Below are positions 17,074-59,925 of a stretch of 64,000 nucleotides of DNA, one piece after another (the first letter of the stretch is position 1; every line of letters starts with the position of its first letter). This stretch comes from Niastella populi (GTDB lineage: Bacteria; Bacteroidota; Bacteroidia; Chitinophagales; Chitinophagaceae): assembly GCF_002078015.1 (NCBI RefSeq), contig NZ_LWBP01000254.1:186001-250000 (forward strand), in the 5' to 3' direction. Made by a program: the position numbers and the translations under genes. The notes under the pieces are model-generated. The model had not been told where the DNA came from. It worked only from the letters and a program-made list of their open reading frames with translations, and searched no databases.

Positions 17074-17148
17074 TAACAGGTTACAGGGTCCAGGTTTCAG
17101 GGAAATTGCACAAGGCAGGCCCTGTAACCTGCAGCTTGTAACCTTTAT
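17074..17148. repeat. heptamer inverted-repeat element (after infB)
   Basis: Left arm from 17074: TAACAGG, TTACAGG, GTCCAGG, TTTCAGG, an exact 7-nt period (NNNCAGG). Right arm from 17121: CCTGTAA, CCTGCAG, CTTGTAA, CCTTTAT, which is the reverse-complement word CCTGNNN. GGTTACAGGGTCC (17079-17091) can pair with GGCCCTGTAACC (17118-17129). It starts 3 nt after the infB stop. Confidence 0.8.
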
Positions 17149-17248
17149 CATTTTACCTGACACAACTTTTTGTTAATTAACGTATCCCGTTCAGTAATTG
17201 GCCAGGTAACATTTAAATTTGGCACTGTCCCTTTCAAAAAAGAATCAG

Positions 17249-18622
17249 ATGAAACCTGTATTTACATTTGTTACCGCCTTGTTTTTTGTGACCATTGCGG
17301 TAGCACAGGCACCCCGTAAAGTAACTGCCGATAAAATCGTAGGCATAGTTGGCGATAAGATCATTTTAAAATCTGATGTTTATAACGATATCCTCGACCG
17401 TCAGCGTCGTGGTGAACCCGTTCCTGAAAATGCCGATTGCGCAATTATGGAACAGATCCTCACGCTGAAAGCCCTGGTAGTGCAGGCCGAAAAAGACTCT
17501 ATTCAGGTGGGTGACGATGAAATAGAAGCCCTGCTCGATAACCAGATCCGCGGTTTCGTAAATATGTACGGGTCAAAAGAAGCACTGGAAGAAATTGCCG
17601 GCCGTACAGTTTACCAGATCAAAGAAGATTTCCGCCAAACCTTCAAGGAAAGAAAGCTCGCCGAGCGCATGCGCGATAAAATTGTTGAAAATGTAAAGAT
17701 CACGCCGCAGGAAGTAAAAGACTTTTTCGCGAAAAAAGACCAGAAGAACCTGCCCTTTTACGAATCGCAGGTGGTGATAGGGCAAATTACAGTGAACCCG
17801 AAAGCGAGCCGCGACCTCGAAAAGCTCACCATCGATGAATTGAACGACTTCAAAACGCAGGTAGAATCAGGCACACAGAAGTTTGAAACCTTAGCGCGTT
17901 TATATACCGATGACCCGGGAAGTAAGGAAAGCGGCGGTCAATATTCCATAAACCGTACTGAAAAAACATGGGACCCGGCGTTTCTTAACAACGCCTTCCG
18001 CCTCAAAGAAGGCCAGGTATCCCCGGTGTTTAAATCAAAATTCGGTTATCACATTATACAAATGGTAAGCCGCGCCGGTGATGATGCCATCGTTCGCCAT
18101 ATATTACGCATTCCAAAGATCACTGATGATGAAATAAATGAAGCCATCGACAAACTCGACTCCGTACGCGCCAAACTGATAGCAGGTACCATTACATTCG
18201 GTGAAGCGGTTGCCAAGTACAGTGAAGATGAGAATTCAAAGTTTACCGGTGGCTATTTACAGGGTCCAAACGGAAGCACATTTCTTGAATTGAACCAGCT
18301 CGATAAAGACCTGGTAGAGCTGTTAGGCAAAAGCGGCTTAAAAGCCGGCGAATATTCGAAACCTACCCCTTACACCGATGAACGGGGAAAAAAAGGTGTA
18401 CGCATCATTTATTTGAAAACACGTACAACACCGCACGTTGAGAATTTGAAAGACGATTATGACCACCTGGCAAAAGACGCACTGGAAATAAAAAAACAAA
18501 AAGCGCTTGAAACCTGGTTTGAATCTAAAATTCCGACATACTACATCATGATCGATCCTGATTTTAACGCCTGCAGCACGTTGAAGAACTGGATGCAATA
18601 TGCGACCGCCAGCAATAAGTAA
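17249..18622 (+). CDS. SurA-like periplasmic peptidyl-prolyl isomerase / chaperone
   Basis: Helps outer-membrane proteins fold in the periplasm. 457 residues from the ATG at 17249, which gives a signal peptide (MKPVFTFVTALFFVTIAVAQ); a TTG ten codons upstream is less likely. An N-terminal SurA-type helical region (KIVGIVGDKIILKSDVYNDIL) is followed by two parvulin domains (about 170-280 and 285-395; the first has DPGSKESGGQY and FKSKFGYHIIQM, the second a matching ENSKFTGGYL). A strong terminator follows. Confidence 0.88.
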   Translation: MKPVFTFVTALFFVTIAVAQAPRKVTADKIVGIVGDKIILKSDVYNDILDRQRRGEPVPENADCAIMEQILTLKALVVQAEKDSIQVGDDEIEALLDNQIRGFVNMYGSKEALEEIAGRTVYQIKEDFRQTFKERKLAERMRDKIVENVKITPQEVKDFFAKKDQKNLPFYESQVVIGQITVNPKASRDLEKLTIDELNDFKTQVESGTQKFETLARLYTDDPGSKESGGQYSINRTEKTWDPAFLNNAFRLKEGQVSPVFKSKFGYHIIQMVSRAGDDAIVRHILRIPKITDDEINEAIDKLDSVRAKLIAGTITFGEAVAKYSEDENSKFTGGYLQGPNGSTFLELNQLDKDLVELLGKSGLKAGEYSKPTPYTDERGKKGVRIIYLKTRTTPHVENLKDDYDHLAKDALEIKKQKALETWFESKIPTYYIMIDPDFNACSTLKNWMQYATASNK

Positions 18623-18648
18623 CAGACATTAAAAATGGAACATATTTG

Positions 18649-18675
18649 AGCCCCGGCATTACTGCCGGGGCTTTT
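18649..18675 (+). terminator. intrinsic terminator after the SurA-like gene
   Basis: AGCCCCGGC (18649-18657), loop ATTACT, GCCGGGGCT (18664-18672), then TTTTATTTT. Perfect 9-bp GC-rich stem. Confidence 0.85.
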
Positions 18676-18985
18676 ATTTTAAATGGTACCTGTGCCATAA
18701 CGATATCTAACGCCCCCCTGGTCCGGCTATCAAGACCAAGGGGTTGTTTTTGTAATGGTGATTGGGTATATTTGAACGGTCTTTTTGCGGTCATTTGCTG
18801 TTATATGCTTTTGCAGTAATGTATTATTCATTGCAATAAATAGTCATTTAAGTGTAGGTGTAAACCCTTAAATGGGGTAGAAACGTATCCATGACTGTTG
18901 GCGTGAACCAGCTTTTAAGTATTTTGTATAAGTATTTACATGTAAATATCACGTTAAAATTTATCATGTAAGCTGCACATGCTGT
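18676..18985. other. intergenic leader region of the histidine kinase
   Basis: About 310 bp without a gene. It holds a second hairpin (CCCC-TGGTC at 18714-18723 with GACCA-GGGG at 18733-18742, one mismatch, then TTGTTTTTG), which may be a backup terminator. It also holds a 16-bp palindrome at 18933-18948. No clear -33/-7 pair was found. Confidence 0.5.
18933..18948. promoter_or_regulatory. 16-bp palindrome upstream of the histidine kinase (candidate operator)
   Basis: TATTTACATGTAAATA, perfectly symmetric, 37 bp before the kinase ATG. The core TTACATGTAA occurs again at 31244-31253 in another divergent promoter region. Confidence 0.45.
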
Positions 18986-21900
18986 ATGTTAAAACAGTCA
19001 AAGAAATCCATTCCTGAAGTAATAACTGATTATACCGCCCTTAGCCTGCAAACGGATCTGGCGGGTATAATTTTGTCGGCTTCATCCGAACTGCTTTCTT
19101 TCACTGGCAAGCATCAGGAAGAGCTTATAGGCATTTCTTTCAAAAAGATCATCGACTCCACCGATAAACCCAAACTACAGGCCATATTAAATACCGGTAT
19201 TGATACCGGTTTAACAATTCAACTTGCATTGAAAGGAAAATCGGGCGTGCGTCAAATTGGTTTTTCTGCCACACAGGAAAAAAGTAGCCGCAAAACAGGC
19301 GATGTAATTGCCTGGAAGGCTGTTCATGACCCGCGTTCAGCCCCTCTGCCGTCTTCAACCGATAACCTGCTCCAAAAATTCTTCCGCTTTTCGAACGACC
19401 TTTTGTGCCTGATCGATGAGGAAGGATATATAAAAAACGTAAATCAGCCGTTTACCGACCTGCTGGGCTATACCGCCGAAGAAATGCAGGACAAACATTT
19501 TATACATTTTATTCATTCCGACGAACGGCCATCGTTCATTGAGTTAGGTTTTCTTACCGCTGAGTTCGATTACTTATGTAAGAACGGCCAGGTAAAAAGG
19601 ATTTCCTGGTCAACCACCGGCCTCGAAGAAGATAAGTGCGTGCTCGCCATAGGCAGGGAAATAACAGCGCGCATTATTCCTGAAGAATCCAATGCAACGC
19701 TGAAGGAAGTATACCAGGAACTGAAAGAAGTTACTGAACGGTACAAAGCATTTGTACAACAAAGCTCGGAGATCATCTGGCGGTGCGAGTTACAAACGCC
19801 CATCAATATTGACGACCCTGAAGAGAAACAATTACAGCAGTTGTTCGCAGGCACGCTCGCCGAATGCAACGACCATATGGCGCATTTTTACGGATACGAA
19901 AATGCGGCCGGCGCTATAGGCAAAAAAGTTTCGGCATTCTTCGATCCCAATGAACCGGTAACCTGCCAGGTAGTACAGGAGTTTATCAGGGGCGGGTACA
20001 AAATATATCGCCGCATGTCGATGCATATCGATCACGAGGGCAATAGAAGATTTTTCCTGAATAACCTCGTAGGTGTTGTAGAAGATAGAAAGTTATTGCG
20101 CGTTTGGACCACCCAGAACGAGATCACCCAATTGCGGCTGGCCGAAAAAGCCAACCGGTACCAGGCTACTGTACTTGAAAACGTGTTTGATGCAGTAATG
20201 GCTTCTGATGAAAACTATTGCACCAAAAGTTATAATCACGCAGCTGAAAAATTGTTTGGCATAAAGACTGCCGATATAATGGGCAGGGCCATACATGAGC
20301 TCATCGACTTTGATTTTCACGATACAACCCGTGAAAAGTTGTTGGAAGAATTATTTTCAACCGGCGCCTGGAATGGGCAGCTCTCATTTATACGGCCTTC
20401 AGACGGGAAAAAGATCATTTTATGGTCAACGATATCCCTTCTAAAAAATAAAAAGGGTCAGATCACCGATATCATTTCAGTAAACAAGGACATTACCGAA
20501 CGTAAGCAGGCAGAGCAGGCAATACGGGAAGGCGAAGAACGCTTTCGCCAGTTTGCCGATGCGGCGCCTGTTATCATTTGGGTGGCCGATGAAATGGACA
20601 ATACCATTTATGTAAACAAATGTTTTGAACAGTTTACCGGGGTTACGTTGAATGAAGTTGGCGGCGATGGATGGGCGAAGATCGTTCACCCGGCCGACCA
20701 GCCGATAGCAATAGAAAAATACAAACGTTATTTCAGGTACCGCGAACCGGTAGTGCTGGAATACCGTATCAGGAATAAGGACAATGAGTACCGCTGGGTG
20801 CTCGATCATGGTGTGCCCCGTTTTTTGGAAGACGGCACCTTTGTAGGATATATTGGTTCCATAGTTGAAATACACGACCGCAAACTGGCCGAAGAAAAGA
20901 TCCGTTTTCAGGTGCAGGTAATGCAGGATGTGTCGGAAGGAATTGTTTCAACCGATCTGGAGCTCAACATCATCTCGTTTAATAAAGCGGCTGAAAATAT
21001 TTATGGCATACCCGGCCACGAAATTATTGGCCGGCGCCTCAATGATATCATTAACCTCACGTATTTGTCAAATACCTGGGAAGGCGCCTTGCAGGAAGTG
21101 CATGAAAAAGGAAGCTGGGAAGGCCAGGCTTATTACAATCGCCTCGATGGTAAACGCATTTATCTTAACTGTGCGCTGTCGTTTGTAAAGAACGATCGCG
21201 GAACCCGTATTGGTTTCGCCGGCATTTACCGCGATATTACCGAGGCGCGTCAATCGCAGGAAGATCTGCGGATAAATGAAGAACGGTACCGTTCTGTAGT
21301 GCATGCGTTGGGTGAAGGTATCCTCATGCACGATAAGAACGGCGATATCATTGCCTGCAACCGCAGCGCTGAAATGATCCTGAACGCGCCCTGTGAAGTT
21401 TTGATTGGAAAAAAATCGATTGAAACGGAAAGCATATATATATATGAAGATGGTACGCCATTCCCGAATGAGCAACATCCTTCCCTCATAACGTTGCGAA
21501 CCGGCCGTTCCTTACAGAATGTGATCATGGGTATTCAGCACAGGGAAGGTCCGCTGGTTTGGATCTCGATCAATACCGAACCGGTATATTACACCGAACA
21601 ACGCGTACATCCCGATGCGGTGGTTTCTTCGTTTGTAGATATTACGCAGAAGAAAGCGGCGGAAATAGAACTACGAACCAGCCAGCACCAGTTGAGAGAA
21701 TATTCAGAACGTATCACAAACATTCTGGCCAGTATAACCGATGGCTTTATTGCCGTTGACAAGAACAAGCAGATATTCTTATGGAACCATTCGGTAGAGT
21801 ATTTGACCGGATTGAATGCAAAAGATGTTATTGGTTCCGACGTAGAGAAGATCTTCCCGAATTTTGTAGGTACTACCGGGTACCACCATTATATAGAAGC

Positions 21901-23602: not shown

Positions 23603-23617
23603 ACCCCCTTATTGATT

Positions 23618-24259: not shown

Positions 24260-24604
24260 ATGGGGGCACTGGTAATCGAAATCTTGTAGTATATATTCTA
24301 CAACAGGTATTTATTTGTAAAGTTTACAGGGATATTCCATAACTGTTTGGGGGACATGCAACACCGGCCTAAGGGTAAACCTTTATTTTTGGCTGAAAAA
24401 ATTCATTAAGTGTTCAAAAGACATTGAATTTTTTATGATTTCTTTCAGAAAAATCATCAATTTAGCGCTACCAATATCTATAGTAAAACAATTAAAATCC
24501 AACGTCCAAGATCCAAATCCTAAAGAAAAGCTGAACCGTCCAATGCCTGTTTAAATTAAAAAACAAACCGGCGCAGATATTGATCCAATGTCCTGATGAG
24601 GAAC
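24260..24604. other. intergenic stretch with a heptamer repeat; possible small-RNA region
   Basis: No protein gene recognised. A TATTTTTG box (24384-24391) lacks a well-placed -33 element. A heptamer repeat lies at 24494-24521 and an intrinsic terminator at 24605-24637. That terminator is about 345 bp past the regulator stop and upstream of the next promoter, so it must end either a long 3' UTR or a separate RNA. Confidence 0.4.
24494..24521. repeat. heptamer repeat (AANNTCC words)
   Basis: AAAATCC, AACGTCC, AAGATCC, AAATCCT in strict 7-nt register. A possible partner, GATCCAATGTCC, lies at about 24580-24592 but is not clearly inverted. Member of the heptamer family seen at other gene ends in the window. 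Confidence 0.65.
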
Positions 24605-24637
24605 AACCCCCATACCTATGAAGACTGGGGGTTTTTT
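24605..24637 (+). terminator. intrinsic terminator upstream of the purF-like promoter
   Basis: AACCCCCA (24605-24612) pairs with TGGGGGTT (24626-24633), inside a run ending in six T's. Confidence 0.8.
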
Positions 24638-24660
24638 CATTTTCCCGCCTTAACATTCCA

Positions 24661-24695
24661 TTGTTTCTTCTTCTCATTTATTCCTTGTAACTTTG
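24661..24695 (+). promoter_or_regulatory. probable promoter of the PurF-like gene
   Basis: TTGT at 24661-24664 and a consensus TAACTTTG -7 box at 24688-24695 (23-bp spacing, slightly long), 29 bp before the ATG. Confidence 0.55.
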
Positions 24696-24724
24696 CGCTT
24701 TCTTTTTATAATCGGGAGTAATTC

Positions 24725-39398: not shown

Positions 39399-40901
39399 GT
39401 GAAGCTATTATCGCCTGCCATATCATCATTGGCCCGTATGCGTTTGTGGCGCATAGAGGGTTGGAAAAATAATCCTGCCGACGCCCAGCGTGAGGTATTG
39501 CAGGATCTGGTAACATCTGCCCAGTATACAGAGTTTGGCCGCAAATATAATTTCTCGGGGCTTTTCAATGTAAAGACCTTCAAGCAAACGGTTCCCATTC
39601 ATGAATATGAAGACCTGCAGCCATACATTCAACGTATAATGAAGGGCGAGCAGAACCTGTTGTGGAATACACCGGTTTACTGGTTTGCCAAAAGCAGCGG
39701 TACAACCAGCGATAAAAGCAAGTTCATACCGGTTACCGATGAAAGCCTTGAAGATTGTCATTATAAGGCAGCCAAGGATGTATTGACATTATATTATCAG
39801 TTCAATCCCGATTCGGACCTGTTGACAGGCAAGGGCCTGGTAATTGGCGGAAGTCATAATATAAACCCGTTGAATGCCGATGCGCAATATGGCGACCTGA
39901 GCGCAGTATTGTTGCAGAACTCTCCTTTCTGGGGGCACTGGCTGCGGGTGCCCGATCTGAGCATCGCCCTTATGGATGAATGGGAAAGCAAGATCGAGAT
40001 GCTGGCGAACAGCACCATAAAAGAAAACGTCACTTCTATTTCAGGCGTTCCTACCTGGACGTTGGTACTGTTCCGGCGTATACTGGAACTTACCGGCAAA
40101 AGCACGATGGCCGAAGTATGGCCACACCTGGAATTGTATATGCATGGCGGCGTTTCGTTTACGCCTTATAAAGAACAGTTCGAAAAACTCATAGGCAAAC
40201 CTATACATTACCTCGAAATGTATAATGCCAGCGAAGGCTTTTTTGCTGCCCAGGACCGACCGGGTGAGGAAGGTATGCTGTTGTTCACCGATCACGGCAT
40301 TTTTATGGAGTTCATGCCACTGGAAGAATATGGAAAGAAACATCCCGATACCATCGGTTTGCAGGATGTTGAATTGGGAAAGAACTATGCCATGGTGGTA
40401 AGCACCAACGGTGGTTTATGGCGTTATTTATTAGGCGACACCGTTCAGTTCACATCGCTGAACCCATTTAAGATAAAAGTGAGCGGAAGGGTAAAACACT
40501 TTATCAATGCCTTCGGCGAAGAAGTGATCGTTGATAACAGCGACCGCGCCATAGCCGTTGCCAGTGAAAAAACAGGCGCCATAGTAAATGATTATACCGC
40601 CGCCCCGGTATACTTCAGCGATAGCGGTAACGGCGGTCATGAGTGGCTGATAGAGTTTGAAAAAGAACCAACCGACCTCAACCATTTTGCACAGGAACTG
40701 GATACCGCCCTCAAAAGCGTCAACAGCGATTACGAAGCCAAACGGCATAAAGATATTGCCCTGCGCCAGCCATTGGTAAGGTCCCTCTCCAAAGGCATTT
40801 TCACCAGCTGGTTAAAAAGTAAAGGAAAGCTGGGCGGACAACATAAAGTGCCCCGCCTGAGCAATGACAGAAAGTATATTGAAGAAATACTTGCGCTCTG
40901 A
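39399..40901 (+). CDS. GH3 auxin-responsive-promoter-type acyl-adenylating enzyme
   Basis: Member of the ANL-related GH3/JAR1 family (not glycoside hydrolase family 3), found widely in Bacteroidota. Such enzymes adenylate a carboxylic acid and may join it to an amine. Start taken at GTG 39399 (reads KLLSPAISSLARMRLWRIE), 500 residues; a frame open from 39312 would add 29 unlikely residues. The ATP/AMP motif is SSGTTSDKSKFIPV at about 95-110, and LEMYNASEGFFA is a second hallmark. Substrate unknown. Confidence 0.85.
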   Translation: MKLLSPAISSLARMRLWRIEGWKNNPADAQREVLQDLVTSAQYTEFGRKYNFSGLFNVKTFKQTVPIHEYEDLQPYIQRIMKGEQNLLWNTPVYWFAKSSGTTSDKSKFIPVTDESLEDCHYKAAKDVLTLYYQFNPDSDLLTGKGLVIGGSHNINPLNADAQYGDLSAVLLQNSPFWGHWLRVPDLSIALMDEWESKIEMLANSTIKENVTSISGVPTWTLVLFRRILELTGKSTMAEVWPHLELYMHGGVSFTPYKEQFEKLIGKPIHYLEMYNASEGFFAAQDRPGEEGMLLFTDHGIFMEFMPLEEYGKKHPDTIGLQDVELGKNYAMVVSTNGGLWRYLLGDTVQFTSLNPFKIKVSGRVKHFINAFGEEVIVDNSDRAIAVASEKTGAIVNDYTAAPVYFSDSGNGGHEWLIEFEKEPTDLNHFAQELDTALKSVNSDYEAKRHKDIALRQPLVRSLSKGIFTSWLKSKGKLGGQHKVPRLSNDRKYIEEILAL

Positions 40902-41010
40902 AGACTGAAGTAAGAGGCTTCTTACTTCCGGCATCCGGTTTCCGACACCCCACTTCGACCCCACGTCCCGTACTTCCGGCCTTTGGCTTCTTATTTCCGA
41001 CTTCTTTCCT
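40902..41010. repeat. heptamer inverted-repeat element (after the GH3-auxin-type gene)
   Basis: Left words GAAGACT, GAAGTAA, GAGGCTT start at the stop codon (40899). Right words TTACTTC, CGGCATC, CGGTTTC, CGACACC and later ACTTCCG, GCCTTTG, GCTTCTT, ATTTCCG, ACTTCTT. GAAGTAAG and CTTACTTC (about 40908-40929) form a hairpin with a 6-nt loop. It fills the gap to fabG almost completely. Confidence 0.8.
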
Positions 41011-41011
41011 G

Positions 41012-41019
41012 TACTTTTG
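41012..41019 (+). promoter_or_regulatory. -7 box of fabG
   Basis: TACTTTTG (TAnnTTTG) 19 bp before the ATG, directly after the heptamer element. Confidence 0.5.
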
Positions 41020-41038
41020 CTCACCCAAATACGATACT

Positions 41039-41794
41039 ATGAAATTATTAGAAGGAAAAGTTGCTATTGTTACCGGTGCAGCCCGTGGCATTGGTGAAGC
41101 TATTGCCTTTAAACTGGCTGAACATGGCGCACATGTAGCTTTCAGCTATGTTAGCGACAGCAGTGCCGAAAAGGCCGCTCAGCTGGAGCAAAAAATAAAA
41201 GCACTGGGCGTAAAATCCAAAGCGTATAAAAGTAATGCCGGTAATTTTGCCGAATGTGAAACGTTTGTAAATGATGTAGTAAAAGAATTCGGAACGGTAG
41301 ATGTATGTGTGAACAATGCAGGTATTTCAAAAGATAACTTATTACTGCGCCTTACTCCCGAACAATGGGACGATGTAATGGATATAAACCTGAAGAGCGT
41401 TTATAATATGACCAAACAGGTTATTCGCCCCATGATGAAAGCAAAAAAAGGCTCCATAGTAAATATGAGTTCGATCGTTGGTATTCGTGGTAATGCCGGA
41501 CAAAGCAGCTATGCCGCCAGCAAAGCCGGTATCATTGGCTTTACCAAATCGGTAGCGCATGAACTGGGCAGCCGTAATGTACGTTGCAATGCCATTGCAC
41601 CCGGTTTTGTTGAAACCGATATGACACACTACCTGAAAGATGGTGATGGTGCAAAAGCATTTCTCGATAAAATTCCTTTAGGCCGCTTTGGCAGTGGGGA
41701 GGAAATCGCGAACACTACCCTGTTCCTGGCTTCAGACATGAGTTCTTATATTACCGGACAGGTAATAAGCGCCTGCGGCGGGTTAAATATTTAA
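41039..41794 (+). CDS. fabG: 3-oxoacyl-ACP reductase FabG
   Basis: NADPH-dependent short-chain reductase of fatty-acid elongation, 251 residues. Cofactor motif TGAARGIG, NNAGISKD, catalytic Ser in NMSSIVG, Tyr and Lys in SYAASKAG, and PGFVETDM after it. The C-terminal YITGQVISACGGLNI is very like FabG's usual VDGG-type end. It stands alone with its own -7 box and terminator. Confidence 0.92.
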   Translation: MKLLEGKVAIVTGAARGIGEAIAFKLAEHGAHVAFSYVSDSSAEKAAQLEQKIKALGVKSKAYKSNAGNFAECETFVNDVVKEFGTVDVCVNNAGISKDNLLLRLTPEQWDDVMDINLKSVYNMTKQVIRPMMKAKKGSIVNMSSIVGIRGNAGQSSYAASKAGIIGFTKSVAHELGSRNVRCNAIAPGFVETDMTHYLKDGDGAKAFLDKIPLGRFGSGEEIANTTLFLASDMSSYITGQVISACGGLNI

Positions 41795-43179: not shown

Positions 43180-43250
43180 GGTTACTGGTTACAAGATGGA
43201 GGGGAAACAGGTCAGCGGCGACCCCTGCAAGCTGTAACAGGTTTTCAGGT
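43180..43250. repeat. heptamer inverted-repeat element (after nhaD)
   Basis: Left words from 43180: GGTTACT, GGTTACA, AGATGGA. Right words from 43225: CTGCAAG, CTGTAAC, then AGGTTTTCAGG. The left arm's complement resembles the right arm. It begins 5 nt after the nhaD stop; its words resemble those of the element after infB. Confidence 0.65.
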
Positions 43251-46424: not shown

Positions 46425-46554
46425 ATGGTGAATGGTCAATCTGACTGTTCAGATTGCCGTCAGCTTCAGTAATATGCGGATAGCAATATTTTCAGGTAAC
46501 ACAGGTTTGTTTTTACCTGAACCATCGCGAGCTATTCACCATTGACCATTCAAC
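46425..46554. repeat. heptamer inverted-repeat element (between paaZ and a beta-barrel gene)
   Basis: Left words from 46425: ATGGTGA, ATGGTCA. Right words from 46534: ATTCACC, ATTGACC, ATTCAAC, ending next to the stop of the - strand gene at 46555. TGAATGGTCAA and TTGACCATTCA are exact inverted copies about 95 bp apart. Confidence 0.75.
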
Positions 46555-47199: not shown

Positions 47200-47685
47200 A
47201 TGACGCGGTTAACGATAGCCCTTATAAGCCTCAGCCTGTTTGCCTCTGCCTGTAATAACGGTGCTAATTCCGGTGAATCAACCGAACATAAAAGCGGTCC
47301 GCCGGCGCCTAAAAACCGGGAAGATTCCCTGTTTCGCGAGGTAATGGAAGGCCACGATGCCGGTATGGCCAAAACGGGTAAACTGCGGGGAAATATAAAG
47401 GAAACCCAGCGTCAACTCGACAGTATTGGCAAACTGCCGGCCAGCAGGGTGAATGCGGCCTATAAACAATCACTTGTCGATTTGCAAACAGCACTTAATA
47501 AAGCCAATACGGAAATGAACGCGTGGATGGAAGGCTTTAAAGTGGATACTTTATCGGATAACAAAGAGTTGCGTATTAAATACCTGGAAGAAGAAAAGGC
47601 AAAAGTCACTGTCGTAAAAGAACTGATCTTTTCTGCCCTTAACCAGGCCGATTCGGTGCTGAAACCAATTGGCAATAGGCAATAG
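47200..47685 (+). CDS. hypothetical lipoprotein with coiled-coil-like helices
   Basis: 161 residues. Lipoprotein signal MTRLTIALISLSLFASAC, Cys18. The mature part starts with a Ser/Gly/Pro-rich linker and continues as long charged helices (GKLRGNIKETQRQLDSIGK, DLQTALNKANTEMNAWMEGF, LRIKYLEEEKAKVTVVKEL). No family recognised. The last codons (IGNRQ) and the stop are made of heptamer repeats (CAATTGG, CAATAGG, CAATAGA), so the repeat has taken over the gene's end. Confidence 0.78.
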   Translation: MTRLTIALISLSLFASACNNGANSGESTEHKSGPPAPKNREDSLFREVMEGHDAGMAKTGKLRGNIKETQRQLDSIGKLPASRVNAAYKQSLVDLQTALNKANTEMNAWMEGFKVDTLSDNKELRIKYLEEEKAKVTVVKELIFSALNQADSVLKPIGNRQ

Positions 47686-47820
47686 ACAACGGGCAAAGCG
47701 CAGGTCCTTAGCTGCATAGGTAAGGATGAAAACTTAGCGGAAATTTCTGCAGCAATTAATTATGAACCAAAACTGTTGATAGTGATTCCGCATTGATGAT
47801 TGCCTGCTGCCTGGTGAATT
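47666..47820. repeat. heptamer inverted-repeat element overlapping a stop codon
   Basis: Left words from 47666: CAATTGG, CAATAGG, CAATAGA, CAACGGG, CAAAGCG (CANNNGG type); the gene's TAG at 47683-47685 lies inside them. Right words from 47792: ATTGATG, ATTGCCT, GCTGCCT (read as CCTGCTG, CCTGGTG from 47803), the inverted type CCNNNTG. Confidence 0.8.
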
Positions 47821-49013: not shown

Positions 49014-49047
49014 AACCACAAACCATAAACTACAAACCACACACCGG
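49014..49047. repeat. heptamer repeat (between the htrA-like gene and adk)
   Basis: AACCACA, AACCATA, AACTACA, AACCACA in exact 7-nt register (49014-49041), then CACCGG. It ends at the adk stop (49048). A clear inverted partner was not found, though AAATGAG, AAATGAA lie just after the htrA-like stop. Confidence 0.75.
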
Positions 49048-49629
49048 TTATGCAGGTTGTTTAGCTTCTATTTTAGCAACAAGCGAACCGAAGATCTCTT
49101 CAATATTGCCTTCGCCTTTTATTTTGGCCACTTTACCAAACCTGGCATAGTAATCGGCAACCTGGGCAGTTTTGTTATCATATTCAACCAGGCGTTTGCG
49201 AATCACGTTCTCATCGCGATCGTCGCTGCGGGAAGAAGTTTTGCCCCTGTTCAGCAGGCGGGCAACCAATTCTTCCTGACCAACTTCGAGCGCCAGTACG
49301 AGGGTTATTTCACTGCCTTTTCCGGCGAGCAGGTTATCCAGCGCTTCAGCCTGGGCAACTGTTCTGGGAAAACCATCGAACAGAAAACCTTTGGCGGCCG
49401 GGTTGGCGTCAAGCGCAGAACCGATCATGCCAATAACCACTTCATCAGGCACCAGCTGGCCTTTATCCATAAATGATTTTGCCTCAAGACCCAACCGGGT
49501 TTCATTGGCAATTTCTTTACGCAGCAGATCGCCGGTTGAAAGATGGATCCAACCGAATTTTTCGATCAGCTTTTCTGACTGGGTTCCTTTTCCGCTTCCG
49601 GGAGGTCCGAATAATATAAGATTAAACAT
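49048..49629 (-). CDS. adk: adenylate kinase
   Basis: Converts ATP and AMP into two ADP. 193 residues from the ATG at 49629 (MFNLILFGPPGSGKG); three upstream codons are probably not used. P-loop GPPGSGKGTQ, AMP-binding HLSTGDLLRKEI, DGFPRTVAQA, and a short LID (LLNRGKTSSRSDDRDE) without zinc Cys, so it is a short-type Adk. A -7 box (TATATTTG, - strand) lies 26 bp upstream. Confidence 0.96.
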   Translation of the reverse strand: MFNLILFGPPGSGKGTQSEKLIEKFGWIHLSTGDLLRKEIANETRLGLEAKSFMDKGQLVPDEVVIGMIGSALDANPAAKGFLFDGFPRTVAQAEALDNLLAGKGSEITLVLALEVGQEELVARLLNRGKTSSRSDDRDENVIRKRLVEYDNKTAQVADYYARFGKVAKIKGEGNIEEIFGSLVAKIEAKQPA

Positions 49630-50511: not shown

Positions 50512-50548
50512 ATAACTGGTTGTCAAGAATACACAGGAAATTCAAGAG

Positions 50549-51034: not shown

Positions 51035-51042
51035 TATCTTTG
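51035..51042 (+). promoter_or_regulatory. -7 box of rlmD, 4 bp before the ATG
   Basis: TATCTTTG matches TAnnTTTG. So close to the ATG at 51047 that the mRNA would be leaderless or nearly so. Confidence 0.5.
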
Positions 51043-51046
51043 CGGC

Positions 51047-52471: not shown

Positions 52472-52535
52472 ATAACAATTCTACCGCCTTATTTGTAACA
52501 AAACATACCGAAATTCATGTAATAAATTTTTCAGA

Positions 52536-53225: not shown

Positions 53226-53388
53226 CAGCCTGCAACTTTAACAACGCTTTAGCTGTTAAAATAAGGAGGTGGAACCCGGTTTGCCTCTTAAATACACCTC
53301 GCCGATGCGCCTGAGCCTTAACCAAAGGGCTCACATAGCGTAAAGGCTGGAAGTTGAAGGATTTTGTAAATTCATTAAAACTTGTTCA

Positions 53389-54315: not shown

Positions 54316-54323
54316 TTTTAAAT

Positions 54324-55460
54324 ATGGCCCGGTTTGTTAGAACATTCTCAAAGCGGTTATGCATTATATTGAACGTGGTTATCGCGGGTCTTTTCCTGAT
54401 AGCCTGCGCCAATGCCTGGCTGCATCCTTCAAAATGGTGGTTTTTTTCATTGCTGGGACTCGGGTTCCCGGTATTGCTCCTCTTTTTATTTGCTTTCCTC
54501 GTATTCTGGCTGATCTTCCGCTCAAAATGGGCCATGCTTTCTGCCCTTGTTCTGCTCATCGGTTTAGGGAACATCCGTGTTTTTTTAGGCCTTCATTTCG
54601 CCACATCCTATAAACCTGAAAAAGAAAAAGGCGCGCTGCGGATCCTGACCTGGAATGTGCATTGGTTCGATGAGCATAACAAAAAGATCAAAGAGCGCAA
54701 GGATTACCGGAAAAAGATGATCGATTTCATAAAGGAACAGAATGCCGATGTGCTGTGTTTTCAGGAGTTCCTCGAGTTGGGAAAATCGTTCACTTCCAGT
54801 AATACCAATGCCATTGTACAACTTAATTATCCATACTATTACCGCGTTATCGATTATGGCCAGGCAAGCGGCGGCCGCTTTCAGGCCGGGGTGGCCATTT
54901 TTTCGCGTTTTCCCATTACTGATACCCAGCGGGTGCGGTATCCCGACCCGGCCAATTTACGGGCGGCCGAAAGTTTGATCTCGGCCGATGTGCTGGTAAA
55001 CGGCAAAAAAGTAAGGATCTATACCACCCACCTGCAATCTGTTCTGTTCCAGAAGAACGACTACCGCAATATCGAGATCATAAAATCGGCCAACGACAGC
55101 ATGGTGGCTGCCTCGCGCTCAATTGTCAAAAAACTGCGGCAGGGTTATTCCTTTCGCGGCGACCAGGCCGACCTGGTGCGTGGTAAGCTCGATAGCTGTC
55201 CTTACCCCGAGATCATTTGCGGCGATTTTAACGACGTGCCCAATAGCTATGCCTACTTCAAAATAAAAGGAAACCGCCAGGATGTTTTTGTGAGAAAAGG
55301 CTACGGCATCGGCCGCAGTTTCGCCGCCGTATCGCCTACCCTGCGCATCGATTATATTTTGGCCGACAGAGCCTTCGATGTGCTGCAGTATAACCGGTTC
55401 CTGGTGCCCTGGTCGGATCATTACCCGGTGGTGGCCGATCTGAAGCTGGCTGAGGAATAA
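54324..55460 (+). CDS. membrane-anchored endonuclease/exonuclease/phosphatase (EEP) protein
   Basis: 378 residues. Three N-terminal membrane helices (about 12-95) precede a complete EEP domain: LRILTWNVHWFDE, VLCFQEFLE, TTHLQS, ICGDFNDVPNS, and SDHYPVVADL at the end. Starts 8 bp after the rhomboid-like gene, so they are probably co-transcribed. Such proteins may be phosphodiesterases acting outside the cytoplasm; the substrate is unknown. Confidence 0.88.
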   Translation: MARFVRTFSKRLCIILNVVIAGLFLIACANAWLHPSKWWFFSLLGLGFPVLLLFLFAFLVFWLIFRSKWAMLSALVLLIGLGNIRVFLGLHFATSYKPEKEKGALRILTWNVHWFDEHNKKIKERKDYRKKMIDFIKEQNADVLCFQEFLELGKSFTSSNTNAIVQLNYPYYYRVIDYGQASGGRFQAGVAIFSRFPITDTQRVRYPDPANLRAAESLISADVLVNGKKVRIYTTHLQSVLFQKNDYRNIEIIKSANDSMVAASRSIVKKLRQGYSFRGDQADLVRGKLDSCPYPEIICGDFNDVPNSYAYFKIKGNRQDVFVRKGYGIGRSFAAVSPTLRIDYILADRAFDVLQYNRFLVPWSDHYPVVADLKLAEE

Positions 55461-55653
55461 ATGGACCGACTACCGGTTGAATGGTGTCAGTTCGGTGTTA
55501 AGGCGTGAAACGTGAAACGGCAAAACGTGAAATGCGCGAATTTTGTAATTCATTTACAACCCCGCACAGCCCGAAAGTTATTGCCACTTGCGCTTCTCCC
55601 TTTCACCCTTCACAGCCTGCCCCGATGAAGTGAAGGTTCGACGTTTCACGACC
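55461..55653. repeat. 351-bp gap to cysS: heptamer inverted-repeat element
   Basis: Left words from 55504: CGTGAAA, CGTGAAA, CGGCAAA, ACGTGAA. Right words from 55594: TTCTCCC, TTTCACC, CTTCACA, then CGTTTCACG at 55642-55650, the exact inverse of CGTGAAACG at 55504-55512. An open frame at 55588-55782 runs through the repeat and is not believed. The cysS promoter follows. Confidence 0.75.
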
Positions 55654-55683
55654 TTGGTTTTATCGCAAATACCCCTATATTTG
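55654..55683 (+). promoter_or_regulatory. probable cysS promoter
   Basis: TTGG at 55654-55657, 18 bp, then TATATTTG at 55676-55683 (TAnnTTTG). Leaves a leader of about 120 nt. Confidence 0.5.
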
Positions 55684-55811
55684 AAATATGATCCATTTCT
55701 TCACACATTCCTGTTGTTGCTGATTCAATTCGCCGTTCTGGCGGGATACATTTATTTTTGCATCTACCGGCTTTTATTTTAACTATCATCAGACTGATTT
55801 AATGATTTTTT

Positions 55812-57308
55812 ATGAGTGAACTCAAAGTCCTGAATTCATATACAAGGCAGAAAGAAGTGTTTAAACCTATCACACCCGGCCATGTGGGATTGTACGTGTG
55901 CGGACCAACCGTGAGCGGTGAAAGCCACCTCGGCCATGCGCGGCCGTATGTAACCTTCGACGTCATTTACCGGTACCTGATGCATCTCGGTTATAAGGTG
56001 CGTTATGTACGAAATATCACCGATGCCGGCCACTTTGAAGAAGAAGGGCGGGAAGCGGAAGATAAGATCGCCAAAAAAGCGGTGCTCGAAAAACTGGAAC
56101 CCATGGAGCTGGTGCAGAAGTATACCAACCTTTTTCACTGGGGCATGAAACAGCTCAATAACCTCGATCCCAGCATAGAGCCTACCGCCACCGGCCATAT
56201 TGTTGAACAGATAGAAATGATCAAAAAGATCATAGAAGAAGGGTACGCGTATGAAATAAACGGCTCGGTGTATTTCGATGTAAAAAAGTATGCAGAGGGT
56301 TACCCATATGGCAAACTGAGCGGCCGGGTGATGGATGACCTGCTCGAAACTACCCGTGAGCTGGAAGGCCAGGATGAAAAACGGAATAAACAGGATTTTG
56401 CCTTATGGAAAGCGGCGCCCGAAGAACATATTATGCGTTGGGTAAGCCCATGGGGCGAAGGGTTCCCCGGCTGGCATATCGAATGCTCGGCCATGAGCAC
56501 CAAATACCTCGGCAGTGAATTCGATATCCATGGCGGTGGTATGGACCTCCAGTTCCCACATCATGAAAGCGAGATCGCCCAAAGTACTATCTGCAATAAA
56601 CATGTGCCGGCGCGATATTGGTTGCATAACAACATGATCACTATCAATGGCCGCAAAATGGGTAAGAGCTATAACAATGTGATCAAGCTGACGGAGCTGT
56701 TCAGCGGCGACCATCCGTTGCTTGAAAAAGCTTATACCGGGCCAACCATTCGCTTTTTCATTTTGCAAACCCATTACCGCAGCACGCTCGATTTCAGCAA
56801 TGAAGCCCTGCAGGCATCGGAAAAAGGATTGAAACGCCTGTGGGAAGCATATGAAGTATTGGGTAAGCTCGATGTGAGCGGGCTGAAGGCCGAAGCTGGC
56901 GATGCAGCGCTGGATGAAAAAATAACAAAGCTGCTACTTGAGCTGGATGAATTCATGAACGATGACTTCAATACTGCCAAAGTGCTGGCCAATATGTTTG
57001 AACTGGTACCTGTTATCAATTCAATAAAGGATAAACATATTGCTCCCAATGCGCTGAGCGCTGGCACTATGGAGTTACTGCAGAAATATTTTAAAACATA
57101 CATTGAAGATATCCTGGCGTTAAATGGCGACGTGGAAAAAGAAGATGGTAAACTGGAAGGGGTGATCGGGTTGTTGATAGAAATAAGAAAAGAGGCCAAG
57201 GCCAGAAAAGACTACGCCACCTCCGACAAGATCCGTCAGCAGTTGCAGCAACTGGGCATTTTATTGAAAGATGAGAAAGATGGCGGAATGAGTTATTCGT
57301 ATTCGTAA
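55812..57308 (+). CDS. cysS: cysteinyl-tRNA synthetase
   Basis: Charges tRNA-Cys. 498 residues, class I. The HIGH motif is HLGH ([15 protein letters not shown]); the KMSKS motif appears as KMGKSYNN; zinc ligands are in [10 protein letters not shown] and WHIECSAM with [20 protein letters not shown]-like helical C-terminus follows. Its own terminator lies just downstream. Confidence 0.97.
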
Positions 57309-57316
57309 GAATACAA

Positions 57317-57517
57317 CTTCAGGCTTCAGGAAATTTATCAGGTGCGTCAACCCGATGATCGGGCAGGGCGCACCTTTTTTATTTAGCCGTTTGCCTCCGG
57401 TTCTCCCATGCAACGGTATGAAGTAATTGTATTGCGTATGGCCTGCAGCGGCAGCCTGAAGCAATTTTGCCTTCAGCTCTCAGCCTTGGGTTTTCAACCC
57501 GCTGCCTGTAGCTGTAT
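57317..57517. repeat. heptamer element (between cysS and mnmD)
   Basis: Left: CTTCAGG, CTTCAGG (57317-57330). Right, from 57469: GCCTTCA, GCTCTCA, GCCTTGG, GTTTTCA, ACCCGCT, GCCTGTA, GCTGTAT, seven words in register. The cysS terminator lies between the arms. The convergent mnmD gene ends at 57538. Confidence 0.65.
57340..57380 (+). terminator. terminator after cysS
   Basis: AGGTGCG (57340-57346) with CGCACCT (57369-57375), an inner stem CCCGAT/ATCGGG, then five or more T's. Confidence 0.85.
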
Positions 57518-57537
57518 TTAATTAGCACATTAGCAAA

Positions 57538-58215
57538 TTACTTTCGGCTTGCTCTTATCATCTCCCGTTTACCCGCCGGCCCGGCAATTTTTTCAACGCT
57601 GAACCCTGCTGCCAGCAGCGCGCGCCGAACATCTCCCTTGCTGCTGTAAGTGACAAGAATACCATCAGGCGCCAGGATGTTCAGCATGCGCTCAAACACC
57701 TCCTTTGTCCACAATTCAGGTTGCGCACTGGGTGCAAATGCATCGTAGTAGATGATGTTTACCGGCTCACCCGGTGTATAATCGGCAAGTAACGATCTTA
57801 TCTTTTTAAAGGAAAAGAAATTGGTAATGTGCTGGGTACTGTTCCATTCACCGGAATGTAAAGAGTCGAATACCGGTTGCCAGAAACCCTGTTCCAGGGC
57901 TGTGCAATAGTTCAGTTCCCGCGTAATTGACTGTTCAAGGGGAAATGCTTCTATCGTTTCATACATTATTTTCCGTTGCCGCCTTTTGGACTCCAGGATC
58001 GAAAGCAGGGCATTGAGCCCGGTGCCAAACCCCATTTCAAAAATTACACAACGGCTGGCAGATGTGTGCTTGTCAAGCCAGTACTTCAAACCCGATTCAA
58101 TAAAAACGTGCAACGATTCCTGAACAGCCCCATAAACCGAGTGGTAAGAAACTTCCCACTCGGGAATAGCTACAGAATGTGAACCATCTTTTGTAACGAT
58201 CAGATTTCGTTGCAT
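57538..58215 (-). CDS. mnmD: tRNA U34 methyltransferase MnmD
   Basis: Methylates nm5s2U34 of tRNAs; corresponds to the methyltransferase half of E. coli MnmC, without the oxidase half, as in many Bacteria. 225 residues: SAM-binding FEMGFGTGLNALL, then YYDAFAPSAQPELWTKEVFERM and LVTYSSKGDVRRALLAAGF, all family-like. A -7 box (TAATTTTG on the - strand, 58223-58230) ends 7 bp before the start, so the leader is very short. Confidence 0.9.
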   Translation of the reverse strand: MQRNLIVTKDGSHSVAIPEWEVSYHSVYGAVQESLHVFIESGLKYWLDKHTSASRCVIFEMGFGTGLNALLSILESKRRQRKIMYETIEAFPLEQSITRELNYCTALEQGFWQPVFDSLHSGEWNSTQHITNFFSFKKIRSLLADYTPGEPVNIIYYDAFAPSAQPELWTKEVFERMLNILAPDGILVTYSSKGDVRRALLAAGFSVEKIAGPAGKREMIRASRK

Positions 58216-58222
58216 AAGAAAA

Positions 58223-58230
58223 CAAAATTA
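58223..58230 (-). promoter_or_regulatory. -7 box of mnmD
   Basis: Reads TAATTTTG on the - strand, 7 bp before the start codon. Confidence 0.45.
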
Positions 58231-58282
58231 ACGGCTAAATTGCAATACCGCTAATGGCCTTGCTGTAAACCTACAAAATAAA

Positions 58283-58906
58283 ATGAGTCAGGAATATACC
58301 TTACACCTTTCGAAAGATAAAAAAATTAAAAAGCTCATTGAGCACCATGGTGCCTTCACCCTTACCAAACGAAAAAACGTTTGCATCTATCTCTGCGCCT
58401 CCATTATGAGCCAGCAACTTTCAACCAGGGTGGCAGACGTTATTTATCAACGGTTTTTGAACCTGTACGGCGGCAAAGAGCCAAAGCCTGAACAGATCAT
58501 CGATACCGCACCCGAAACGTTGCGCGCCATTGGGTTATCGAATGCCAAAACAGGTTACGTACAGAATGTAGCGCGTTTTGCTTTGGAACAGGGTATGGAC
58601 CAGCGCAAGCTGGGTAAAATGGATGATGAGGAAGTGATAACCTACCTGTCGCAGATTAAAGGTGTTGGCCGCTGGACGGTTGAAATGTTGCTGATGTTTG
58701 CCCTCGGCCGTGAAAATGTATTTGCCCTTGACGACCTTGGCATCCAGAATGCCATGATAGCCCTGTATAAGCTCGACCGCACCGATAAAAAACAATTCAG
58801 GGAAGATATGTTGCATGTAGCCAACAAGTGGAGCCCCTACCGTACTTATGCCTGCATGTACCTCTGGCGCTGGAAAGATAACCCGCCGCCATTGAAGAAC
58901 CGGTAG
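58283..58906 (+). CDS. DNA-3-methyladenine glycosylase, AlkA-like (HhH-GPD)
   Basis: Removes alkylated bases from DNA. 207 residues, lacking the extra N-terminal domain of the 282-residue E. coli AlkA. The helix-hairpin-helix is LSQIKGVGRWTVEMLLMFALG, and the following VFALDDLGIQNAM holds the catalytic Asp. Divergent from mnmD. A heptamer repeat starts right at its stop codon. Confidence 0.9.
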   Translation: MSQEYTLHLSKDKKIKKLIEHHGAFTLTKRKNVCIYLCASIMSQQLSTRVADVIYQRFLNLYGGKEPKPEQIIDTAPETLRAIGLSNAKTGYVQNVARFALEQGMDQRKLGKMDDEEVITYLSQIKGVGRWTVEMLLMFALGRENVFALDDLGIQNAMIALYKLDRTDKKQFREDMLHVANKWSPYRTYACMYLWRWKDNPPPLKNR

Positions 58907-58934
58907 GTCAATAAGCAATAGGCAATTGGCAATA
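58907..58934. repeat. heptamer repeat starting at the alkA-like stop
   Basis: GTCAATA, AGCAATA, GGCAATT, GGCAATA in exact register from the base after the TAG at 58904-58906. No inverted partner was found nearby. Confidence 0.8.
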
Positions 58935-59129
58935 GAAGAAAATGCTGTATGGTGCAATAATTTTTGAATGTTCCAAATAAGGCGCTGAGCCGTCTTATTC
59001 TACCATTCATCTATCCAAAACAGGGGGTGAGCCGGCTCTGCTGCCCTGTTACAGGAATGTAAAAGGCCGTTTGAAAGAACGCCGCCATTAAACTTTTGAC
59101 AGTAACAGGCTTCCCATGCAAAAAGAAAT

Positions 59130-59765
59130 ATGCGCAAGGGAATACTTTTAGGATTTATACTAATGGCCTGCTTTTACGAAAGCAATGCCCAGTATGGCCG
59201 TAGTTACGGCCGGGATCGCGAATACCGCCGCAGGCAGATCCGCGAGTTTCAAAACTTCAAACCGTCGCTCGATGTTTCCATTGGGTATGGCTTTCCCAAT
59301 CTCGACAAATACTTACTTGCCGACTTCTACAATTATTATCAGGGCAGCACCACCCGGTCGGGGCCGGTAATAGCAAGCATCGATTACCGCTTTACACCCC
59401 GTATGGCCATTGGCGTAATGGTGAACTATGGGAAGGTGAGCAGGCCGTATTATAATTATTACACGGGCGAACAGGATTTTACCGGCAGTATAACCAACGC
59501 CGCGGTATTATTGAACTTTACGCGTTATATGGGCATGTCGCAAAAGATAATGCCATATACCCGTACGGCAATTGGCATCAATACCGGTGAAAGTAAATAT
59601 TTGGCGGCTGATGGGTCAAAGGCTGCCGATACCGATGAGGGTTCTTCCCTGGCATACCAGGTTGGGTTGGGTGTTCAGTTCAACGCTACCAAACACGGCG
59701 GGTTCTTTGTTGAAGCGGGATATGGAAAATATATTGTGGCAGGCGGACTGAAGATGAGATTTTAG
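59130..59765 (+). CDS. hypothetical outer-membrane beta-barrel protein
   Basis: 211 residues with a signal peptide (MRKGILLGFILMACFYESNAQ), then an unusual Tyr/Arg-rich stretch (YGRSYGRDREYRRRQIREF). The rest reads as beta-barrel strands (LDVSIGYGFPNLDKYL, PVIASIDYRFTPRMAIGVMV, GFFVEAGYGKYIVAGGLKMRF at the end). Function unknown. It stands alone; its stop codon joins directly onto a heptamer element. Confidence 0.75.
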   Translation: MRKGILLGFILMACFYESNAQYGRSYGRDREYRRRQIREFQNFKPSLDVSIGYGFPNLDKYLLADFYNYYQGSTTRSGPVIASIDYRFTPRMAIGVMVNYGKVSRPYYNYYTGEQDFTGSITNAAVLLNFTRYMGMSQKIMPYTRTAIGINTGESKYLAADGSKAADTDEGSSLAYQVGLGVQFNATKHGGFFVEAGYGKYIVAGGLKMRF

Positions 59766-59925
59766 GCAATCGGCAATCGTGAAACGGCAAACCTCAGCGC
59801 GGCGTACGCCGGCAATCGGCTCGGATTTCGGGCGGCGCAAGAGCGTAAATAAATCCAAAATTTCGCGAGCCGTTTGCCGTTTCACGTCGCGAGGCCATTC
59901 ACGATTCACGATTGCCGTTCACGAT
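59766..59925. repeat. heptamer inverted-repeat element (whole gap between convergent genes)
   Basis: Left words start right after the stop: GCAATCG, GCAATCG, TGAAACG, GCAAACC (59766-59793). Right words from 59897: ATTCACG, ATTCACG, ATTGCCG, TTCACGA, ending at the jetC stop. CGTGAAACGGCAAA (59778-59791) has an exact inverse TTTGCCGTTTCACG (59873-59886). The largest, clearest copy. Confidence 0.85.

What the first reader, a model, noticed from the sequence alone, without database searches (positions are those of the whole stretch)
17074..59925. A family of gene-end elements built from degenerate 7-nt tandem words, usually inverted
At eleven places in this window (24494, 17074, 40902, 43180, 46425, 47666, 49014, 55504, 57317, 58907, 59766) the sequence just after a stop codon keeps an exact 7-nt period with only three or four fixed positions per word, for example NNNCAGG repeated, then its inverse CCTGNNN about 40 bp on. 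Each place uses a different word, so simple copying of one repeat does not explain them; the shared feature is the period, the position at gene ends and, in most, the inversion. Several abut or overlap stop codons. I know of no named repeat class with this rule. Possible roles are RNA 3'-end protection, a protein binding lattice, or scars of a template-switching process.
Basis: partly seen in the sequence, partly recalled or inferred. Interest (0 to 1): 0.75.

Follow-up and report, generated by a model that had tools for sequence, protein, structure and literature searches.

The report
Gene-end hairpins of repeated DNA words
The spaces after genes in this bacterium and its sister species are dotted with small DNA elements, many with two mirrored arms made of a few loosely repeated seven- or eight-letter words, and because each species favours its own words and swaps them at the same sites, they look like a little-studied kind of spreading repeat rather than chance stutters.

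Summary
In 864 kb of this Niastella genome (about 10%), intergenic DNA has a lag-7 excess (z 20, echoes at 14 and 21) and a second, missed lag-8 excess (z 17). There are 157 period-7 arrays (1.3 in shuffles) and 87 of period 8 (2.7); N. koreensis repeats this. They favour gene 3' ends and avoid divergent spacers. About half have an inverted partner nearby.

"A different word at each place" is incomplete: about 20 word families cover most arrays, with strong species dialects. Paired arms share a word family, but variant order in one arm does not predict the other, which argues against template copying. At orthologous gene ends, elements come and go and words are swapped. Families with strictly kept motifs rarely exceed four words per arm.

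Best reading: REP/BIME-like dispersed elements whose arms are multi-box recognition sites; mobility and reader protein are inferred, not found. Nearest in print: Geobacter paired octamer/heptamer sites and cyanobacterial heptad hairpins. New variant of a known, un-unified kind. Slippage alone, Rho sites and intrinsic terminators are disfavoured. A neighbouring IS200-like gene is an inconclusive lead.

The parts
17073..17101 (+). left arm, heptads (GTTACAG/TTNCAGG family), just after the stop of the IF-2-like gene
   Evidence: lag-7 p<1/300, inverted repeat p<1/150; coordinates; gene
17120..17153 (+). right inverted arm (CCTGTAA words)
   Evidence: pairs with 17078-17102, score 17
24498..24516 (+). 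weak heptad array (TCCAANN)
   Evidence: p 0.027, no significant inverted partner
   Evidence: period-8 score 24
40900..41004 (+). heptad element (GAAGTNN ... CTTCCGG): inverted arms 40900-40918 and 40986-41004, array 40918-40944
   Evidence: lag-7 p 0.010, inverted p 0.007; related element at the same site in G002, G006, G007
43188..43238 (+). degraded TTACAGG-type hairpin
   Evidence: not significant alone (p 0.077 and 0.22); a clear TTACAGG hairpin stands at the same site in G003
46425..46549 (+). heptad element (GGTGAAT/GGTCAAT): arms 46425-46440 and 46534-46549
   Evidence: lag-7 p 0.007, inverted p 0.007
47671..47702 (+). heptad array (GGCAATN), begins inside the preceding ORF
   Evidence: lag-7 p<1/300; no significant partner
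49014..49045 (+). heptad array (AACCAYA), beside the end of the convergent ORF at 49048
   Evidence: lag-7 p<1/300; no partner tested as significant
55504..55613 (+). heptad element (CGTGAAA/CGGCAAA): arms 55505-55527 and 55591-55613
   Evidence: lag-7 p 0.003, inverted p 0.047; word swapped or element absent in other species
57310..57540 (+). weak heptads 57310-57324 / 57504-57518 around a terminator-like hairpin, plus octads 57521-57540 (ATTAGCAN)
   Evidence: lag-7 p 0.040; octad score 10; hairpin kept in species without arms
58909..58933 (+). heptad array (CAATNGG)
   Evidence: lag-7 p<1/300; no significant partner
59765..59913 (+). complete element: left arm 59765-59792 (GGCAATC/GTGAAAC), core 59826-59871, right arms 59869-59887 and 59897-59913
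   Evidence: lag-7 p 0.003, inverted p<1/150; core shared with other loci

Best explanation
These are members of a large superfamily of small (roughly 60-200 nt) dispersed palindromic elements, REP/BIME-like in behaviour. A complete copy is arm - short core - inverted arm; each arm is a few (often four) consecutive degenerate 7-nt or 8-nt words. The arms are best read as multi-box recognition sites: the fixed letters and exact period are kept, the other letters vary freely. Word families rise and fall per species, giving dialects; copies are tolerated at gene ends and between operon genes and rare in divergent spacers. Shown: reality, two periods, shared vocabulary, independence of arms, presence or absence with the core, word swaps at the same site, dialects, some recurring cores. 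Inferred: spread by transposition or conversion in trans, reading of words by a protein, and that effects on mRNA ends are secondary. The machinery is not identified.
For: Arrays far above shuffles in two species. Limited vocabulary: 13 families cover 131 of 147 heptads, 9 cover 75 of 87 octads; 45% of N. koreensis heptad and 41% of octad consensus words identical to one in the window species (8% and 3% for letter-shuffled words). Dialects in whole genomes: ATTTTCAA pairs 50 in N. caeni, 0-2 in eight others; GTTTRT 387/425/188/157 in four species, 0-42 in five; GATAATKY 120-147 in three, 0-40 in six. Site reuse: occupancy variance 0.106 vs 0.026 permuted; same word at a site 66 of 270 species pairs (0.24 vs 0.06). 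Element loop detectable in 7 of 124 comparisons with species lacking arrays, spacers 183 vs 102 nt. One core family with at least 61 matching segments, self included, in the own genome, with differing arm words.
Against: No target duplication or clean border was resolved, and no close strain pair was available. No mobilising enzyme is shown: the IS200-like gene next to an element is matched by nearly as constant neighbours, and relatives of it elsewhere mostly lack arrays (4 of 24; 3 of 30 loci, one a run of N and three too short to judge). Only 31 of 78 loops of 40 nt or more have a relative elsewhere, 7 of them one tandem repeat and some of them orthologues; even among species with arrays at a site the loop is found in only 20 of 211 comparisons. 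About half the arrays lack a detected partner. One site has arms around an older terminator-like hairpin.
Confidence: 0.47

Rival explanations
1. Regulator or architectural sites: a DNA-binding protein assembles on contiguous 7- or 8-bp boxes, as proposed (untested) for Geobacter and known for plasmid omega/ParB heptads; the elements are binding sites under selection, not mobile repeats.
For: Only fixed letters kept, order of variants free; alternation of variants; four contiguous heptads are needed for full activity in the omega/ParB system (PMC9499535 passages); paired opposite-strand sites called regulator sites in Geobacter.
Against: Some 20 word families per genome and species dialects; gene ends rather than divergent promoter spacers; Pfam RHH_1 found in 0 of 14 genomes (other DNA-binding families not tested).
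Confidence: 0.22
2. RNA hairpins at mRNA 3' ends (stability or termination) kept by selection for base pairing.
For: Gene-end position; own elements fold well, median z -4.1, 81% below -2, n=43, though inverted arms give this by construction.
Against: No register between arms and wobble-type vs A.C-type differences 71 vs 71; T-run after the element 0.25 vs 0.22 background; many arrays unpaired.
Confidence: 0.13
3. Neutral polymerase slippage of 7-8-nt units at tolerated places, as proposed for heptamers in general.
For: Heptamers are the commonest long simple repeats in many genomes and a 7-nt polymerase contact was proposed (Mrazek 2007 as cited in PMC4679880, section 3); some long uniform arrays exist, e.g. 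(CGGCAAG)n at L344; match rate falls with distance in words (0.76, 0.71, 0.68); several motifs show declining chain counts.
Against: Adjacent words are not more alike than shuffled ones (665 vs 687; 186 vs 227) while next-but-one are (679 vs 504; 288 vs 161); shared vocabulary and dialects; inverted pairs of one word with G-rich left arms; no rise from 3 to fewer words and a sharp drop after 4 in families with strict motifs.
Confidence: 0.1
4. One arm is a template-switched copy of the other (quasipalindrome scar).
For: Arms are inverted and share one word family.
Against: Word-order shuffling leaves complementarity almost unchanged (16.2 vs 15.7, 59 pairs; 15.2 vs 15.0, 29 pairs); 3 of 88 pairs at p<0.05 against 14 of 32 simulated copied arms with 20% of letters redrawn.
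Confidence: 0.03

Closest known systems
Geobacter metallireducens 'putative global regulator binding sites' classes 1-3 and Gmet_H4 elements (PMC2700814; passages and supplement legends seen)
   Same: Paired sites on opposite strands at variable distance; four tandem degenerate octamers (GTTGCTYN), or five tandem heptamers (MTYCTGA); several word classes in one genome.
   Different: A few dozen copies per class there against an extrapolated 2,000 arrays here; class 2 has three repeats; H4 elements also lie in genes; gene-end bias and species dialects not described in the passages seen.
Cyanobacterial tRNA-Leu(UAA) intron P6b stem, Class I TDNGATT and Class II NNTGAGT (PMC4476775; abstract and passages)
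   Same: Stem of degenerate heptads and their complements; one word class replaced by another at the same place in related strains; origin unknown.
   Different: One locus inside an intron; there the motifs are said to ensure pairing, here pairing at variable letters is not selected.
Cyanobacterial STRR hairpins (PMC2670836; passages)
   Same: Usually 7-bp repeats forming a putative hairpin between genes, one near a gene 3' end.
   Different: Arm rules, octads and dialects not described there.
REP/BIME repeats and RAYT/TnpA-REP (PMC2817692, PMC6006769; passages)
   Same: Short palindromic extragenic mosaic repeats in high copy; families coexisting in a genome.
   Different: REPs are 20-40-bp palindromes with a GTAG/GTGG head beside a RAYT gene; here arms are word arrays and no true RAYT was tied to them.
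TAACTGA heptamer repeats of Beggiatoaceae, some cyanobacteria and Bacteroidetes (PMC4679880; section 3 and passages)
   Same: Intergenic tandem heptamers.
   Different: One invariant word, mostly just upstream of start codons, direct not inverted.
G-rich heptamers of Xanthomonas and Nostoc (PMC4692102; passages)
   Same: Intergenic heptamer arrays, sometimes inverted, varying between close species at the same gene pairs.
   Different: One G-quadruplex-type word.
pSM19035 omega/ParB heptad sites (PMC9499535; passages)
   Same: Contiguous 7-bp boxes in mixed orientation, four needed for full activity.
   Different: Plasmid partition site, one word; Pfam RHH_1 not found in the 14 genomes searched.

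Membership tests
REP/RAYT system | high-copy extragenic palindromic repeat | tested here: met
REP/RAYT system | GT(A/G)G head at the hairpin foot | not tested
   no scan for the head was run
REP/RAYT system | cognate RAYT gene flanked by two inverted repeats | tested here: not met
   142-aa neighbour is IS200-type: NCBIfam REP_Tyr 22.9 bits (cut-off 80), IS200 50.8 (cut-off 55), YIEKQ motif aligned to YIESQ of solved TnpA; element on one side only in the species read. A second, weaker Y1 gene had no array beside it in the loci read
Classical MITE | terminal inverted repeats copied from one another, target duplication | tested here: inconclusive
   arms not mutual copies; target duplication not resolved
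Simple sequence repeat (slippage) | neighbouring units most alike, open-ended length | tested here: inconclusive
   adjacent identity not raised, drop after four words in strict-motif families; but match rate falls with distance and some motifs decline steadily
Intrinsic terminator | hairpin followed by a T-run | tested here: not met
   0.25 vs 0.22 background, 44 elements
Rho utilisation site | enrichment of YC dinucleotides in the words | tested here: not met
   98 of 177 heptad words vs 100.7 expected; 43 of 80 octad words vs 48.0
Ribbon-helix-helix box array | RHH protein present | tested here: not met
   Pfam RHH_1 in 0 of 14 genomes, found in 8 of 14 controls; other RHH models not tested
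Geobacter-type paired sites | paired opposite-strand arrays of tandem octamers or heptamers | tested here: met
   against PMC2700814 passages; Geobacter DNA itself not examined
Rfam family | match at gathering score in the window | tested here: not met
   0 matches in 64,000 bases

The most novel reading that the evidence does not exclude
A pan-bacterial class of word-coded selfish elements: identity lies not in a fixed sequence but in a 7- or 8-nt word written a few times in each of two inverted arms. A trans-acting system rewrites the word of resident elements, in both arms and without copying one arm from the other, so that each species carries a dialect at inherited gene-end sites. The Geobacter paired sites and the cyanobacterial P6b and STRR hairpins would be the same class in other phyla.
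Probability: 0.3. Interest if true: 0.85.

Novelty: new variant of a known kind. Interest (0 to 1): 0.62.

Why it matters
Heptamer and octamer repeats have been noted separately in several bacterial groups as simple repeats or unexplained motifs. Here rules can be counted: two periods, inverted arms, same word but independent variants, gene-end sites, species dialects, swaps at the same site. That turns an old curiosity into a class with testable predictions about a reader protein or mobilising enzyme, with many copies per genome to test them on. It also shows that the spacers between operon genes can change their repeat content quickly between sister species.

Tried and rejected
Rho sites (YC not enriched); intrinsic terminators; RNA stem under pairing selection and arm copying; slippage alone.

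Four-word rule: I tried 14 motif rows (GCTT and AAGC are one). Chains of four exceed chains of three for GTTT (25 vs 11), G[CA]TAAT (26 vs 15), GCTT/AAGC (23 vs 21) and GGT[CG]AA (3 vs 2); they tie for GTT[GA]AC (16 vs 16); they decline for GATAAT (17 to 10), AGTT (16 to 9), GGCAA (5 to 2), GATTT (3 to 2), TTNCAGG (2 to 1), and three rows with 1 to 0. Counts at five are 0-6. The four motifs were picked after that, so its sums (39, 55, 6 and 24, 29, 3 for lengths 3, 4, 5) are not an independent test. For this I lowered my best reading from a drafted 0.5 to 0.47 and raised slippage to 0.1.

RAYT lead: an element beside the IS200-like gene looked unique against 24 control spacers. With three regions, two neighbours in the same cluster reached 6 of 9 species with one word, so it is only a lead. 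All 8 species mapped have an array there, 6 of them within one letter of a common word; in G009 no array lay within the 330 nt read. Relatives of the gene outside Niastella: arrays nearby in 4 of 24 loci; Y1 genes of other genomes 3 of 30, one a run of N, three loci too short to judge.

A ++/-- difference in the window species (2.96 vs 1.46 per kb) did not recur in N. koreensis (2.65 vs 2.69). Polarity: left arm G-rich in 64, C-rich in 14, tie in 24 of 102 pairs, 7 of the 14 being one L027 satellite; octads 19 of 19; N. koreensis 25 vs 8 of 33. Direct (not inverted) neighbours also exceed chance, 25 of 90 against 7.8% (L027 satellite included). The alternation test counts every phase, so its numbers are not independent.

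Rows dropped: part of L027 (satellite) (window-species words), 48 and the length histogram; L027 and L028 (folding; chains). Not dropped. Genes were called by a crude longest-ORF rule in my scripts.


Full report
WHAT WAS CHECKED. The window is G000:C253:186001-250000 of an 8.61-Mb genome in 263 contigs. Relatives place it in Niastella, Chitinophagaceae: G003 shares contig length and coordinates with N. caeni NZ_STFF01000005.1, and G005 has the size printed for N. koreensis GR20-10 (passage of PMC3751351). I sampled the window plus 800 kb of the same genome (864 kb, about 10%) and 800 kb of N. koreensis at even steps.

Of the 11 listed places 8 have a lag-7 score with p<=0.010 and 5 an inverted partner with p<0.05. 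In 521 spacers the lag-7 match rate is z 20 above dinucleotide shuffles, with echoes at 14 and 21; a second class has period 8 (z 17, echoes 16 and 24). Lags 5 and 9-11 show no excess; lags 3 and 6 are raised. At a fixed score there are 157 period-7 arrays (1.3 shuffled) and 87 period-8 arrays (2.7) in 530 spacers. N. koreensis gives 133 (5) and 51 (3), with smaller excesses at periods 9 (22 vs 1) and 11 (16 vs 2). By length this extrapolates to about 2,400 and 2,050 arrays per genome (244 in 864 kb; 182 in 800 kb). In 79 loci of other Chitinophagaceae (L107-L185) periods 7 and 8 are again commonest (57 and 25, others 5-11), at lower density. The GGTTTRT word was found in 6 of 197 other genomes of the phylum sample, 1-6 matches each, reversed control in 2.

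WHERE THEY LIE. Convergent and codirectional spacers are rich, divergent ones poor. In 58 orthologous spacers of three regions none of 9 divergent spacers is occupied in any species; occupancy of the other 49 is far more uneven than chance (variance 0.106 vs 0.026), so the same gene ends are used repeatedly. Elements also sit between codirectional genes; one cluster of N. caeni has four with a species-specific octad (I take the cluster for aro genes from recall of the proteins).

ANATOMY. 119 of 244 arrays have an inverted partner within 150 nt, 24 in a control. In families with strictly kept motifs chains rarely pass four words, and for GTTT and G[CA]TAAT four is the commonest length above background; other motifs simply decline (see Tried and rejected). 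Over all families array length peaks at 30-33 nt for heptads (79 of 280) and 34-39 nt for octads (47 of 138), though the score threshold cuts short arrays. The left arm is usually G-rich. Variant words tend to alternate. Median arm complementarity is 79% and comes from the fixed letters: shuffling word order barely changes it, 3 of 88 pairs stand out where simulated copied arms give 14 of 32. Wobble-type and A.C-type differences are 71 and 71. So one arm is not a copy of the other, and ordinary pairing selection is not seen, although as RNA the elements fold well.

VOCABULARY AND DIALECTS. Thirteen families cover 131 of 147 heptad arrays and nine cover 75 of 87 octad arrays. Of N. koreensis consensus words 45% (heptads) and 41% (octads) occur identically in the window species. 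Whole-genome pattern counts, both strands, overlapping matches included: GTTTRT G000 387, G003 425, G006 188, G007 157, G002 42, G004 11, G005 5, G009 3, G001 0; reversed control G003 9, G000 4, others 0. GATAATKY G006 147, G007 138, G000 120, G002 40, G005 40, G003 7, G001 4, G004 0, G009 0, controls 0. ATTTTCAA pairs G003 50, the other eight 0-2, controls 0.

TURNOVER. At orthologous gene ends species differ in presence and in word, arms together. After the ORF ending at 55460 the window species and G002 have CGTGAAA, G003 and G007 GAAGTNN, G006 TTACAGG, and G001, G004, G005, G009 no array. For 44 paired elements the loop is found in 7 of 124 comparisons with species lacking arrays and in 20 of 211 with species having them; spacers are longer with arrays (median 183 vs 102 nt). 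The site at 57308 differs: arms lie around a terminator-like hairpin that species without arms keep. Some inheritance is visible: the same word at a site in 66 of 270 species pairs (permuted 0.06); when words differ the period still agrees in 135 of 204 (0.66, permuted 0.54).

CORES. One family has a core of about 100 nt with 61 matching segments in the own genome, the query itself included, 72-100% identical; only 40 of 217 first-look candidates were scored, so this is a lower bound. Copies of this core carry differing arm words (29 loci). Of 78 loops of at least 40 nt, 31 have a match elsewhere, 7 of them one tandem repeat and some of them orthologues; a motif like GCTCGCGA recurs by eye under different words.

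MECHANISM. A dispersed element read by a word-specific protein explains most facts together and works like REP/BIME repeats; I give it 0.47. A plain regulator-site reading shares the protein but not the mobility (0.22). The candidate enzyme, a 142-aa IS200-like protein whose HMH and YIEKQ motifs align with solved TnpA, gives one strong Pfam hit in each of the nine Niastella genomes searched and has an array upstream in all 8 species mapped, but neighbours in the same cluster are nearly as constant. It stays a lead.

LITERATURE. Geobacter metallireducens was reported to hold paired, opposite-strand sites of four octamers or five heptamers called putative global regulator binding sites (PMC2700814, passages and supplement legends). 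Cyanobacteria have an intron stem of degenerate heptads that swaps class (PMC4476775, passages) and 7-bp STRR hairpins (PMC2670836, passages). In my ten searches I saw no paper that joins these or describes them in Niastella; only open-licence papers are held.

LIMITS. Crude gene calls; about a tenth of two genomes sampled; species of one genus are not independent; no strain-level data; element borders and target duplications not resolved; only one DNA-binding family (RHH_1) and one transposase family (PF01797) were searched.

Noticed in passing
window 11075-11274; also L048 about 19926-20000: A different tandem repeat built on the palindrome TTTTCATATGAAAA in 21/42/84-nt units, with a relative in L048.
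   Followed up: no
L027 1968-2551: A 77-nt satellite whose units are themselves arrays of AAGCTTC-type heptads.
   Followed up: no
L028 about 6570-7323: A 114-nt tandem repeat containing heptad arms.
   Followed up: no
L233:1474-1902 (G000:C145:137781-138209): A 142-aa IS200/IS605-type TnpA-like gene with intact HMH and YIEKQ motifs, one strong hit in each of nine Niastella genomes, with a heptad array upstream in 8 of 8 mapped species.
   Followed up: partly
L344 (G000:C187:438829-438931, left of the match): A uniform run of CGGCAAG heptads beside the common core, which looks like recent slippage.
   Followed up: no
spacers orthologous to window 40897-41040 in G001, G004, G008: Copies of a CCTGAGCG...CGAAGG-type palindromic sequence where the window species has a heptad element.
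   Followed up: no
L349, L358, L361, L342, L352, L359: Core-family copies with other short modules set into the arms, such as CCCCGACT...CGGGG and CCGAAGCG..GCGAAGG, a mosaic like BIMEs.
   Followed up: no
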